This document shows, piece by piece, positions 13,531-17,700 of a stretch of DNA of 64,000 nucleotides. This DNA is from Acidimicrobiaceae bacterium (GTDB lineage Bacteria; Actinomycetota; Acidimicrobiia; Acidimicrobiales; Aldehydirespiratoraceae): positions 1-64,000 of the forward strand of contig JAPOYA010000001.1 of the NCBI GenBank assembly GCA_026706815.1, given 5' to 3'. The stretch's first letter is position 1, and each line of letters begins with the position of its first letter. The translations under genes were made by a program, and so were the position numbers. The notes under the pieces were generated by a model. The model was given only the letters and a program-made list of their open reading frames with translations, searched no databases and was not told the DNA's origin.

Positions 13531-16500
13531 CTACGGCTTGGTCGCGTCGAGCACTACGACGCTGATCTTGCGGCGCTGCTCGTGGCTCAAGGATTCAATC
13601 AGCCTTCGCTCTAGTTCGGAGGGTGTCCCGGGGCGGTCGTGGGAGTCGGGGTGACGCGGGTACTTGGGTATTCCCGAACCGAACCAGAGGACCACGTAGA
13701 CGCCGTGCCCGTCAGTTGCGGGATCGGAGGTGTAGTTGACGATGAGCTGGTCCTCTATGGCGGTCCAGAGATCTGGGTGAGTGTTCTTCTTGATCTCGAT
13801 GGGGATGTTGAAGCCTTTGACCCCGACTCGGATGTCGGTTCGACGGTCGGCGGCGTACTGTCCCTCCGGCTGGGCGTCGACGCCTTCGGGCAACTGGCTT
13901 CGCAACATCGTCAACAGAGCGTCGCGGCAGCTGTCTTCGTGCTTGGGTTGTTCAGGGGGAGCCTTCTGGTCATCGGCCCAGAACTGCCGCCAGGGATCGG
14001 AGTTGTCACCGCTGATGTGCGTGTTCAAGTCGCGCAGGTGATCGCACAACAACACACGAAGATCTGCAGCATTGTATGGTGGTCCGTTGTCCAGCAGAGA
14101 GATGACATCGGCGACGTCCATCGGAGAATATGAGGTGTCGCTTTGCAGTCGCCGTTGTCGGTTGCGCGCGAATTCCAGGCAGCTGTGCCAGGCACTCAGC
14201 CTCTCGTCGGCGATAAGAGCGTCAAGAGCGTCAGCCGCTTGTGGGGTTGGCTGTCCAGCGAGATCATTGATCCACTGAGAGACCAGATCCGACATCTCCT
14301 CGGCCGGTCCGTAAGAAACGATCTCACCGCTCTTCAAGTCACGTTGTGGGAAGTTGCGGCCGATGACGTCTACGAGCGTTCGGAGCACTGCGCAAGGTTT
14401 GTCGCCGAGCAAACGATCAACGAACTTTGCGGCGTTCTCGAAACCACGAGGAAGGAACTCAGCCAGTTGCCGAGCACGCTTGGAGTTCGAACCGATGAAG
14501 TCGTCGAGCAGCCTCAACGCCTCACCTCCGTTCATGACCGCGTCGAGGGTCATCCACCGGACGCGCTGCGCGTCGGTCATGCTCTTCGCCGCGAGCTTCT
14601 TGGCGACCAACGCCTTGAGCGCCGTCGCGTCTGGATGCTTCGAGACTAGATGCACGAGCCTGTCCATGATCTGCAGTTGGGCGAGAGGCAGTCGAACGGA
14701 GATCGATTTGAGCAATCGCAGTCGAAAGTCGCGCAGGTCCTCTCCGAGACCGTCGACGTTGTCCAGCCAATTCAGCATCCACATGTGCGTTTCGCCGTTC
14801 GCAATGGCTGCGACCGAGCACCTGTGCAGTACGTCAAGCACCAGCGGCGGGTCCTCGTGCAGCCACTTCACAGGCCACGACGGTTGGTGTTGTTGATTCA
14901 ACAACACCGTAGCGTAGATCGCAACGGCGCTGCGCCGTAGGTCATCCGGCGGGTGCCACGAATCAAGGGTTCCCTCAGTTTCACGAATGTCTAGACCGGC
15001 TAGCACCGGGTAGGCGAGCCAGTCGTATTTGGACTTGCTGGACAACTCGGCCGTACGTTCAGCGGACGGGACATCGGCGCGGACTGGCGCATTCCGCAAT
15101 GCGTCTACGACGGCGTCAAGCAGCTCAGCGTCGTCGCCAATCAACTCAGCGACCCTCTCAACAGGTGTTGCGTCAATCGGCGTCTCTCGTAAGCGCCCAA
15201 AGTAGGCCGACGCCAGAGTGTGCAGGTTCTGCGCCGAGAAGCGGTTGGCTGCGAGTTCATCGTGGGACTGTCTTAGAAGATCACGCCACCCGGTTTGCCG
15301 CTCTTGCTTTTCTCGCCCGCGTTCAGCCCTGATCTCGTCGATCTCTCGCTGATATCGGAGTTCCTCTTCTTGGAACTCGAGTTGAACAGCAGAAGGCGCA
15401 AGCCACTCGTCTAAGCGGCTTAGCAGCTGCGGATCGGTCGCCAGCGCTGACCTCAGCTGCTGGATCGAAACCTCTCTGTTCATGATCCATGGAATCCGCA
15501 GCGGCGCGGTCACGAACTCCCAAGCACTCTTCGGGTCTGTCACAGTCCTCGCCAAAGCGTTTTGAGCGCACCACTCAGCGAAGTCCGCTGGGAGTGGTGC
15601 GAACAGTAGTATTTCAACCGCGAAGCGCTCCGAGGAATCCAGATCACCACGAGCGCCCAGGATGATGTGATGTGCCAGAAGCTCCAGATGGGCGTCAGGG
15701 TTGTCGCCGAGCCACTGCTGCATCGATTGCTTATTCTGTTGACTCTGGTAACCGAAATTCCGCAGGTCTCCTGTGACGGAGCACAACCAGCGATAGAGGT
15801 CTGCAACAGGCAAGAGACTCTCAGACTCTGAAGTAAGACGCTCCAACATTCTCCAGGGGACATCGTCAAGGGATCTTGGTCCTGAATCCGCTGGATCACG
15901 ACTGGACTCCCGCGCGAATGCGTCGAGCAACTCGCGAAGCTCATCGACGTCGCTGCCCTCAGCCAGCACATCGTTCCAAAATCTCCAGTAGCGACCTCCT
16001 ATCGGTATACCGGGTCCCTCGAAGGAGTATTGCCAAACATTCCTTGGCGAAACCACCTTCGGGTACAGCAGCCGCAAAAGGGTTCCGGTCAGTTCTCTAT
16101 CGGAGTCGTCGGCATCCAGGCTGCCAACGGAATCCAGCACCTCAAGGAGGGTCTGTTCGGCCTTCTCATCAGTAGGAGCAATGCGATTGAAGGCATCTAT
16201 CGCGGCACGTCTGACTTCTGGGTCAAGAGCCGTATCAAACATGAGCGACTCGACCTTTGGAAGCAAGCACCGCAACTCCTCAAGCCAAATGGCTTCGGCC
16301 TCCGCCAACGAGCGCAATGCAAGCTCTGTGATATGACTTGCGTGATCGCCGGTAGCCGATTTGTCGAGCAATTCGGCGACCGACGAAGTCATGTCTGGTT
16401 TGCACAGGCCCCTGAAGCTCCACGCCACCGCGTCGCGGTAGCGGTGCTCAGTTGAATCAAACCAAGTTGAACCCCAGAAATCTCGTGGCTGCGTCTGATC

Positions 16501-17700
16501 GACGAGACAGTCCAGAAGCTTCCGGCGGTCTCCGACAGGCCATTCGGAGATGTCTCCGTACAGGGCCATCCCGACAGGGTCCGCTGCGATCAGCAGGCTG
16601 CGCGCGGATGCCGAAAGGGTGCCGAGCCACGCGACAAGCCCTCGCAGATCCGTCACGACTCTGCCGCCGACAGGGCTCAGCAAAGCTGCGCATATCCGCC
16701 CTGCCGATACGGTTCCGCTGTCAACAAGATCCGCCAAGTACCGAGCTCCCAGGTACTCGGCGACTTGCCGGTGGACGGGCGCGATGTGCTGCTCCGCGGC
16801 CCCTCTGAAGAGGTTCGTGCTGACAACCCCGTCGGACGTATCGTCAGCATCCGAAGTGATTTCATTTATACCGATGAAGTTGGGATCACCGGGAACGGAC
16901 GAGAGTCGATAGCCGTCTTTGTTCGCTAGGAGTTGGATCGCACACAACCGCATGGCTGCCTCGAGCAACGCGTCGGGAGAACACGTCAGGGTTGAACGGG
17001 GATGATTCGGGTTGTGTTCAGTCACAAGTTCTCGGCACGCGAATTCAAAGACCTCCTGTCGTGACGATGGCAAGCCGTCGGCCCCTGACGCAGATTTGAC
17101 GACCAGCCCGAGCAACTGTGGGTTGCCCAACATGAACTCCATGCCGCTTGCACGGATCTCACCGATGAACGCCGCCGGGTCTTCAACATCGTGTTTCGAC
17201 TTCAAGTATTTGTGTACCGCAGATCGATCCAGAGGGTCCAGAATCAGTGACGCCACACTGTCGTTCGGCGACACGTCAGTGAGGGGCTTGCGGTCGACGG
17301 AGCCCAACCAGTCGGCCACTCGACACGAGATGCGAAAACTCGGGTTTCCGAGAGCATCGAGCCTCGACTGGATCTCGTCGAGTGCGGTTGTGTTGCGGTG
17401 GGTGTCGGATCGGGTCTCGTCAAGACCGTCGATGAAGAGCACCTTGTCTCTCCACTCCGGATGCGCGGCGATGTCGGCTTTTGCGAACCTGCGCGCCGAG
17501 ATGAACTCAGCGGCATCGCCCAAAACCATGCGCTCCTGTTGGAACTCGGTCGTCTTGCCCGAGCCGGGCTCGCCGAGCAGAACGTAGGCGGGCACATCCC
17601 GAAATGCGCTCAGCGGTTGTGATCCCATGTAGCCGGTGCGCGTTGAGCCGTCTGTGGTGATCTCGGTGCAGGAGCGCGGAATCAGGGTGTGTGCGATCAT
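13531..17700 (-). CDS. Giant NACHT-like NTPase (1389 aa) with C-terminal PD-(D/E)XK nuclease-like domain; candidate antiphage STAND protein
   Basis: Walker A LLGEPGSGKTT (17551-17574), NACHT-type Walker B VLFIDGLDE (17416-17442), helical-repeat-like middle, C-term TDIRVGVKGFNIPIEIKK (13786-13836). Confidence 0.75.
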   Translation of the reverse strand: MIAHTLIPRSCTEITTDGSTRTGYMGSQPLSAFRDVPAYVLLGEPGSGKTTEFQQERMVLGDAAEFISARRFAKADIAAHPEWRDKVLFIDGLDETRSDTHRNTTALDEIQSRLDALGNPSFRISCRVADWLGSVDRKPLTDVSPNDSVASLILDPLDRSAVHKYLKSKHDVEDPAAFIGEIRASGMEFMLGNPQLLGLVVKSASGADGLPSSRQEVFEFACRELVTEHNPNHPRSTLTCSPDALLEAAMRLCAIQLLANKDGYRLSSVPGDPNFIGINEITSDADDTSDGVVSTNLFRGAAEQHIAPVHRQVAEYLGARYLADLVDSGTVSAGRICAALLSPVGGRVVTDLRGLVAWLGTLSASARSLLIAADPVGMALYGDISEWPVGDRRKLLDCLVDQTQPRDFWGSTWFDSTEHRYRDAVAWSFRGLCKPDMTSSVAELLDKSATGDHASHITELALRSLAEAEAIWLEELRCLLPKVESLMFDTALDPEVRRAAIDAFNRIAPTDEKAEQTLLEVLDSVGSLDADDSDRELTGTLLRLLYPKVVSPRNVWQYSFEGPGIPIGGRYWRFWNDVLAEGSDVDELRELLDAFARESSRDPADSGPRSLDDVPWRMLERLTSESESLLPVADLYRWLCSVTGDLRNFGYQSQQNKQSMQQWLGDNPDAHLELLAHHIILGARGDLDSSERFAVEILLFAPLPADFAEWCAQNALARTVTDPKSAWEFVTAPLRIPWIMNREVSIQQLRSALATDPQLLSRLDEWLAPSAVQLEFQEEELRYQREIDEIRAERGREKQERQTGWRDLLRQSHDELAANRFSAQNLHTLASAYFGRLRETPIDATPVERVAELIGDDAELLDAVVDALRNAPVRADVPSAERTAELSSKSKYDWLAYPVLAGLDIRETEGTLDSWHPPDDLRRSAVAIYATVLLNQQHQPSWPVKWLHEDPPLVLDVLHRCSVAAIANGETHMWMLNWLDNVDGLGEDLRDFRLRLLKSISVRLPLAQLQIMDRLVHLVSKHPDATALKALVAKKLAAKSMTDAQRVRWMTLDAVMNGGEALRLLDDFIGSNSKRARQLAEFLPRGFENAAKFVDRLLGDKPCAVLRTLVDVIGRNFPQRDLKSGEIVSYGPAEEMSDLVSQWINDLAGQPTPQAADALDALIADERLSAWHSCLEFARNRQRRLQSDTSYSPMDVADVISLLDNGPPYNAADLRVLLCDHLRDLNTHISGDNSDPWRQFWADDQKAPPEQPKHEDSCRDALLTMLRSQLPEGVDAQPEGQYAADRRTDIRVGVKGFNIPIEIKKNTHPDLWTAIEDQLIVNYTSDPATDGHGVYVVLWFGSGIPKYPRHPDSHDRPGTPSELERRLIESLSHEQRRKISVVVLDATKP

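What the first reader, a model, noticed from the sequence alone, without database searches (positions are those of the whole stretch)
13531..17700. 1389-aa NACHT-like NTPase with a C-terminal PD-(D/E)XK nuclease-like domain: candidate new STAND-type defence effector
Seen: Walker A (GEPGSGKT), a NACHT-signature Walker B (VLFIDGLDE), about 1100 residues of mostly helical, HEAT-like sequence, and a C-terminal TDIRVGVKGFNIPIEIKK pattern (D...ExK). Established: bacterial STAND/NACHT (bNACHT, Avs) proteins sense phage proteins and usually carry the effector, often a PD-(D/E)XK nuclease, at the N-terminus. Here the NTPase is at the extreme N-terminus and the nuclease-like motif at the extreme C-terminus, an inverted layout. 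Inference: an anti-mobile-element sensor/effector whose large middle region is the sensor.
Basis: partly seen in the sequence, partly recalled or inferred. Interest (0 to 1): 0.85.

Follow-up and report, generated by a model that had tools for sequence, protein, structure and literature searches.

The report
EruA-like NACHT nuclease with conserved partner

Summary
In detail: an uninterrupted 1389-aa ORF lies at 13531-17700, on the minus strand, with an N-terminal NACHT NTPase, a ~900-residue helical middle and a C-terminal PD-(D/E)XK nuclease domain. The catalytic residues are invariant or nearly so in 75 relatives from many phyla, and AlphaFold2 gives the nuclease topology (pLDDT 90.7). The protein is not a new class: it matches NCBIfam "NACHT domain-containing antiphage protein EruA" over its whole length (801.6 bits), below that model's cut-off of 1000. 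The unit is also larger than reported. A DUF4143/AAA_14 ATPase with its own PD-(D/E)XK motif (PADLOC candidate PDC-S01) lies directly upstream with a 4-bp ATGA overlap. It is directly upstream in 70 of 80 related loci from more than ten phyla, and the two genes share much of their tree. A 36-48-bp palindrome (core TGAGTAA-NN-TTACTCA; variant core in this window) precedes the partner in most operons and is absent before solo EruA genes. Most likely this is an antiphage STAND sensor-nuclease whose operon is autoregulated by the partner through the palindrome. No activity, ligand or palindrome-binding protein was tested.

The parts
13531..17700 (-). EruA-like NACHT-HEAT-PD-(D/E)XK protein, 1389 aa (P0001)
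   Evidence: Open frame; NF058535 EruA 801.6 bits over residues 29-1385, cut-off 1000; over 1000 homologues
16711..17616 (-). NACHT NTPase and winged-helix part, residues ~29-330
   Evidence: Invariant Walker A/B and H310/E315; model's best PDB hit NLRC4
17551..17574 (-). Walker A GEPGSGKT, residues 43-50
   Evidence: G46, G48, K49 invariant in 75
17416..17442 (-). Walker B VLFIDGLDE, residues 87-95
   Evidence: D91, L93, D94, E95 invariant in 75
13981..16710 (-). all-helical superhelix, residues ~331-1240, putative sensor
   Evidence: AF2 model all helix; HEAT-protein PDB matches; weak Pfam HEAT 0.034
13534..13938 (-). C-terminal PD-(D/E)XK domain, residues ~1255-1389 (D1289, E1302, K1304, Q1318...Y1323)
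   Evidence: Conservation, AF2 topology, Foldseek list
17697..18953 (-). partner: AAA_14 + DUF4143 ATPase, 418 aa (P0002), overlapping P0001 by 4 bp (ATGA)
   Evidence: Pfam; PADLOC PDC-S01 PDLC04791 497.7 bits; directly upstream of the EruA-like gene in 70 of 80 loci
17844..17975 (-). partner PD-(D/E)XK-type motif E327 ... D355 ... E368-V-K370
   Evidence: Invariant or 0.99 in 71 partners
18846..18872 (-). partner Walker A GPRQCGKTT, residues 28-36 (Walker B D108/E109)
   Evidence: D108/E109 invariant, K34 0.96 in 71 partners
18974..19009 (.). 36-bp perfect palindrome ATTATGTTCCTGCGCAAATTTGCGCAGGAACATAAT, 20 bp 5' of the partner ATG; this clade's form of the TGAGTAA-NN-TTACTCA element

Best explanation
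It is a two-gene antiphage operon. P0001 is an EruA-type STAND sensor-effector: the ~900-residue HEAT-like superhelix (inferred sensor) recognises a phage product, the N-terminal NACHT domain exchanges ADP for ATP and oligomerises (inferred from STAND biology), and clustering activates the C-terminal PD-(D/E)XK domain, which cuts DNA and stops phage growth, probably by killing or arresting the cell. P0002, a DUF4143 ATPase with its own PD-(D/E)XK motif, is co-translated with it and most likely binds the palindrome in front of the operon to hold expression down, releasing it or joining the response on infection. Shown here: domain anatomy, conserved active sites in both proteins, strict gene order, shared evolutionary history, and a conserved covarying palindrome tied to the partner. 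Inferred: DNA as substrate, phage as trigger, autoregulation.
For: EruA full-length match, a family NCBI names antiphage. NACHT invariants and NLRC4 fold match. Nuclease residues conserved and fold. Partner directly upstream in 70 of 80 loci, with the ATGA-type offset in 53 of 70. 33 of 64 tree splits shared against 0.1 in shuffles, several of them across phyla; Mantel r 0.83. Full EruA members over the cut-off (L072, L084, L088, L100) have the partner too. Palindrome before the partner and absent before seven solo EruA genes; also before solo partner homologues on Collinsella and Bacteroides plasmids and, weakly, Thermus, so it goes with the partner. Patchy presence, an unoccupied site in G050 and a decayed copy in G046 fit a dispensable defence gene.
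Against: No activity, trigger or phage phenotype was measured. P0001 scores below the EruA cut-off. No PADLOC model hits P0001. Neighbouring genes are mostly housekeeping, so defence-island support is weak. Solo EruA genes exist, so the partner is not always needed. The C-terminal model's PDB matches are all above E 0.001. Three palindrome copies in the family's genomes lie away from any EruA operon.
Confidence: 0.62

Rival explanations
1. P0002 is a second effector or co-sensor, not a regulator: the two nucleases act as one complex, and the palindrome is controlled by something else or is only a promoter.
For: P0002 keeps invariant Walker B and PD-(D/E)XK residues, more than a plain repressor would need; PADLOC lists its family as a single-gene candidate defence system.
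Against: The palindrome tracks the partner subfamily, being present before solo partners and absent before solo EruA genes, which points to the partner as its binder. Solo EruA genes apparently persist without it.
Confidence: 0.3
2. The palindrome acts as an RNA hairpin in the 5' leader, or as a DNA cruciform that P0002 itself recognises or cuts, rather than as an ordinary two-fold operator.
For: Outer arm positions change together (70.3% paired against at most 54.2% in whole-arm shuffles of all 60 rows). It folds as RNA with z -5.35. P0002 has a nuclease-type domain.
Against: The core letters TGAGTAA/TTACTCA are conserved, which structure alone does not require. G-U mismatches exceed A-C only 53 to 34 (my tally). 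The 36-48-bp arms also contain a TTAC-N8-GTAA repeat that looks like paired binding sites. Covariation cannot tell a DNA palindrome from an RNA stem.
Confidence: 0.2
3. P0001 is a host maintenance protein rather than a defence protein.
For: The gene order is conserved over many phyla and neighbours are mostly housekeeping genes.
Against: Patchy distribution within the genus, family and phylum, decayed and absent copies at one chromosomal site, cross-phylum transfer in the tree, copies on conjugative plasmids.
Confidence: 0.07
4. The C-terminal domain keeps the PD-(D/E)XK fold but acts only as a DNA-binding or sensing module, and the real effector is P0002.
For: Some PD-(D/E)XK folds have lost catalysis (own knowledge); STAND sensors normally sit at the C-terminus (PMC12169576).
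Against: D1289, E1302, K1304, Q1318 and Y1323 are kept in 73-75 of 75 relatives; inactive domains usually lose such residues. Solo EruA genes keep the domain without any partner.
Confidence: 0.1

Closest known systems
EruA (NCBIfam NF058535, NACHT domain-containing antiphage protein)
   Same: Full-length co-linear match, residues 29-1385 to model 17-1316; same NACHT, helical and C-terminal nuclease order; over-threshold members L072, L084, L088 and L100 carry the same upstream partner
   Different: 801.6 bits against a cut-off of 1000; actinobacterial branch; some over-threshold members (L101, L089) lack the partner; NCBIfam has no model for the partner
HyoA (NCBIfam NF058534)
   Same: Co-linear match over residues 146-1386, NACHT antiphage protein
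   Different: Only 195.5 bits against a cut-off of 1200; a separate, distant family
PDC-S01 (PADLOC single-gene candidate, AAA_14-DUF4143)
   Same: Partner P0002 matches PDLC04791 over its whole length (497.7 bits)
   Different: PADLOC treats it as a single gene; here it is the first gene of a conserved operon with an EruA-like gene
bNACHT25/bNACHT32 and Avs STAND nucleases
   Same: NACHT/STAND NTPase, PD-(D/E)XK effector, large sensor region
   Different: They carry the effector at the N-terminus and the sensor at the C-terminus (PMC12169576; Avs from own knowledge); here the nuclease is at the C-terminus and only ~28 residues precede the NTPase
NLRC4 (animal NLR)
   Same: Best PDB fold match of residues 1-1120
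   Different: 11% identity, no nuclease, caspase-recruiting N-terminus (own knowledge)

Membership tests
EruA equivalog (NF058535) | Score above curated cut-off of 1000 bits | tested here: not met
   801.6 bits
EruA equivalog (NF058535) | Full-length co-linear architecture | tested here: met
   Residues 29-1385 to model 17-1316 of 1318
EruA equivalog (NF058535) | Demonstrated antiphage activity | not testable with these tools
   No wet assay; the source paper was not found in the library
NACHT/STAND NTPase | Walker A and NACHT-type Walker B (DGLDE), NLR-like fold | tested here: met
   Invariant in 75; NLRC4 best hit E 1.5e-6
PD-(D/E)XK nuclease | D...(D/E)xK residues in the right strands plus helix-sheet core | tested here: met
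   top fold hits are mostly PD-(D/E)XK enzymes
PD-(D/E)XK nuclease | Significant single-structure match | tested here: inconclusive
   Best E 0.03
bNACHT/Avs with N-terminal effector | Effector domain before the NTPase | tested here: not met
   About 28 residues precede the NACHT domain
PDC-S01 (AAA_14-DUF4143) | Full-length match to the PADLOC model | tested here: met
   P0002 497.7 bits, residues 4-414 to model 2-393 of 395
HyoA (NF058534) | Score above cut-off of 1200 bits | tested here: not met
   195.5 bits

The most novel reading that the evidence does not exclude
EruA is normally a two-gene, two-nuclease immune system in which the DUF4143 ATPase senses or processes a self palindrome (operator or cruciform) and licenses the inverted-order NACHT nuclease, so that disturbance of the palindrome or its binder by phage is itself part of the trigger.
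Probability: 0.15. Interest if true: 0.8.

Novelty: new variant of a known kind. Interest (0 to 1): 0.52.

Why it matters
STAND proteins link bacterial and animal immunity, and nearly all studied bacterial ones carry the killing domain first and the sensor last. This family reverses that order, spreads over more than ten phyla and, in most copies sampled, comes with a second ATPase-nuclease and a conserved control element that the current family models do not include. If defence tests on EruA are done with the NACHT gene alone, they may miss half of the system and its switch. The palindrome gives a simple handle for finding further operons and for testing how such a lethal nuclease is kept silent.

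Tried and rejected
Paper searches for EruA/HyoA with antiphage or NACHT returned nothing, so the source of the names could not be read; DefensePredictor (PMC13092281) does not mention them. The direct PDB sequence search of P0001 gave only a spurious match to barrier-to-autointegration factor. PHROGs: nothing for P0001, one insignificant P-loop match for P0002. Rfam: nothing at the palindrome. The PADLOC scan of 129 neighbour genes found scattered defence genes (type I methyltransferase, AbiEi, HerA, RT, Cas1, NERD-UvrD), but the small control also rang on generic helicases and ABC proteins, so defence-island enrichment is not claimed. The convergent ATPase gene 12017-13519 was rejected as a part: no homologue in the 80 loci, and its relatives in the genus lie elsewhere. 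Collection scans of viral contigs failed twice for technical reasons. The covariation count used 38 rows picked partly for good arms; one search repeats it on all 60 rows without that choice.
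Full report
Observation. The ORF at 13531-17700 exists as described but is on the minus strand; the plus strand over the same bases is closed by many stops. It encodes 1389 aa. Its genome is a 3.04-Mb assembly (65 contigs) with this single copy; the nearest named relatives come from Acidimicrobiaceae/Acidimicrobiia metagenome bins.

Anatomy. Residues 29-330 are a NACHT NTPase: Walker A G46, G48, K49 and Walker B D91, L93, D94, E95 are invariant in 75 relatives drawn from the 80 loci, as are R123/C126/R127, H310 and E315. 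The AlphaFold2 model of residues 1-1120 (pLDDT 87.3, pTM 0.80) has NLRC4 as its best PDB match (E 1.5e-6), followed by HEAT-type superhelices such as CAND1 and karyopherins. Residues 331-1240 are all helix. Residues 1255-1389 form a helix-strand-strand-strand-helix-strand domain (pLDDT 90.7). D1289 is kept in 74 of 75, E1302 in 75, K1304 in 74, E1255 in 75, E1279 in 74, Q1318 in 75 and Y1323 in 75, while mean column identity there is 43%. Foldseek returns nearly only PD-(D/E)XK enzymes (Can1, DdmD, Bax1, Can2, SfsA, Hjc, McrC, Cdn1, EndoMS), though none below E 0.001. The nuclease fold is therefore well supported by motif, conservation and topology together, not by any single structure match. 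Activity is inferred.

Not a new class. NCBIfam NF058535, 'NACHT domain-containing antiphage protein EruA', matches residues 29-1385 with 801.6 bits (E 1.8e-240); its equivalog cut-off is 1000, so strict membership is not met. HyoA matches weakly. More than 1000 homologues exist, nearly all listed ones full length. The inverted layout is thus a property of the EruA family, not a peculiarity of this protein. The contrast with the usual N-terminal effector is stated in PMC12169576 and PMC13092281.

The missed partner. Directly upstream, 17697-18953 on the minus strand, lies P0002 (418 aa, AAA_14 + DUF4143, PADLOC candidate PDC-S01 model PDLC04791, 497.7 bits), overlapping P0001 by ATGA. Among 80 loci fetched with the P0001 family from bacterial genomes (Actinomycetota, Chloroflexota, Pseudomonadota, Acidobacteriota, Gemmatimonadota, Nitrospinota, Rhodothermota, Latescibacterota, Binatota, Thermodesulfobacteriota and others), 70 carry a P0002 homologue (above 300 bits) immediately upstream on the same strand. 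The start/stop offset is that of an ATGA overlap in 53 of these 70. Of the ten others, three are cut by contig ends (L055, L077, L092), one is masked (L106), three keep only the partner's C-terminal remnant (L071, L078, L114) and three lack it (L049 with a recombinase-like ORF upstream, L089 with an IS110-like ORF upstream, L101) (the recombinase and IS110 labels are by eye). On the tree the solo copies need four changes, three of them nested among partner-bearing copies (loss), plus a divergent plasmid group. The partner and P0001 trees share 33 of 64 splits against a mean of 0.1 and a maximum of 2 in label shuffles, including splits joining different phyla; distance correlation r = 0.83. In the partner, Walker B D108/E109 and the nuclease-type E327, D355, E368, K370 are invariant or 0.99 in 71 sequences. 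EruA members above the NCBI cut-off (L072, L084, L088, L100) also have the partner, and NCBIfam has no model for it.

The palindrome. 20 bp upstream of the P0002 start codon lies a perfect 36-bp palindrome, 18974-19009. An equivalent element, consensus TTACnnTATTGAGTAAwwTTACTCAATAnnGTAA, lies just before the partner in most operons: 53 of 71 match at least 12 of 14 core letters and 61 at least 10; 40 of 71 exceed the 99% level of shuffles as palindromes. The window's branch has TGCGCAAATTTGCGCA as core, shared with L064. In 1.65 Mb of fetched loci the strict core occurs 33 times, 29 at partner starts in the scored loci; the other four lie in EruA-family loci. In 51 genomes of the family TGAGTAANNTTACTCA occurs at two places only, both EruA operons. 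A covariance model finds 13 places there, 10 at EruA operons or their remnants and 3 elsewhere. The outer arms, which were not used to pick the rows, pair in 70.3% of cells against a maximum of 54.2% in whole-arm shuffles and at most 30.5% in slid controls. No such element precedes the seven solo EruA genes checked, but one precedes solo partner homologues on Collinsella and Bacteroides plasmids (13 of 14 core letters) and weakly Thermus (11 of 14). So the element goes with the partner. An operator bound by the partner is the simplest reading; an RNA hairpin or cruciform is not excluded. No Rfam family matches.

Site history. In the genus the unit sits between a luciferase-like monooxygenase gene and a 427-aa gene (19120-20403). 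G050 has an ImuA/ImuB-like pair there and no EruA. G049 has the two-gene unit plus what looks like an ImuB remnant and a PIN-domain gene. G046 has a decayed copy, lacking the partner and the NACHT N-terminus and split in frame, next to a BglII-type nuclease and an MT-A70 methyltransferase. G047 has the partner (and the start of the NACHT gene at a contig end) next to an IrrE-type peptidase gene. Presence is patchy: of 349 genomes of the phylum, only two, both of this genus, have strong full-length matches, with about four more distant ones. This is the behaviour of a dispensable, exchanged defence gene. Direct defence-island enrichment was not shown.

Mechanism. Most likely P0001 senses a phage product through the superhelix, oligomerises through NACHT and cuts DNA with its C-terminal domain; P0002 controls the operon through the palindrome and may also join the response. 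Shown: anatomy, active-site conservation, gene order, shared history, palindrome. Inferred: substrate, trigger, oligomerisation, autoregulation.

Verdict. A real, well-conserved finding, already half known through the EruA name, enlarged here into a two-gene, palindrome-fronted unit. Whether published EruA work already includes the upstream gene could not be checked, because the paper is not in the library.

Noticed in passing
window 18974-19009: Perfect 36-bp palindrome 5' of the partner; relatives across phyla carry TGAGTAA-NN-TTACTCA forms, also before solo DUF4143 genes on plasmids.
   Followed up: yes
window 12017-13519 (+): Convergent AAA ATPase_2 gene with an ArsR/MarR-like HTH (weak match to PADLOC candidate PDC-S27), ending 12 bp from the EruA-like stop; its genus relatives lie at other sites.
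   Followed up: partly
window 19120-20403 (+): 427-aa gene, likely membrane protein by eye, without any Pfam match; conserved in all six genomes of the genus at 76-89% DNA identity; marks one edge of the variable site.
   Followed up: no
L163 2533-4025 (G046): BglII-type restriction endonuclease and MT-A70 methyltransferase genes beside a decayed EruA-like copy at the same chromosomal site.
   Followed up: partly
L187 4341-4388 (G050:C3) and L188 4685-4732 (G047:C188): Copies of the palindrome with no EruA or DUF4143 gene nearby, next to a small conserved coiled protein; possibly orphan sites of the same regulator.
   Followed up: partly
L120 10113-11234 (Paracoccus plasmid p2): A DUF4143 gene lies downstream, not upstream, of a solo EruA-like gene; distant from P0002 relatives (24% identity).
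   Followed up: partly
L071, L078, L114 upstream of the EruA-like gene: Only the C-terminal part of the partner gene remains, directly abutting an intact EruA-like gene in L071 and L078; the N-terminal part has been lost or replaced.
   Followed up: partly
whole_genomes G047, G048, G049, G000: This genus carries an unusual number of DUF4143-type ATPase genes (up to 19 matches in one genome), mostly only 25-33% identical to P0002.
   Followed up: no
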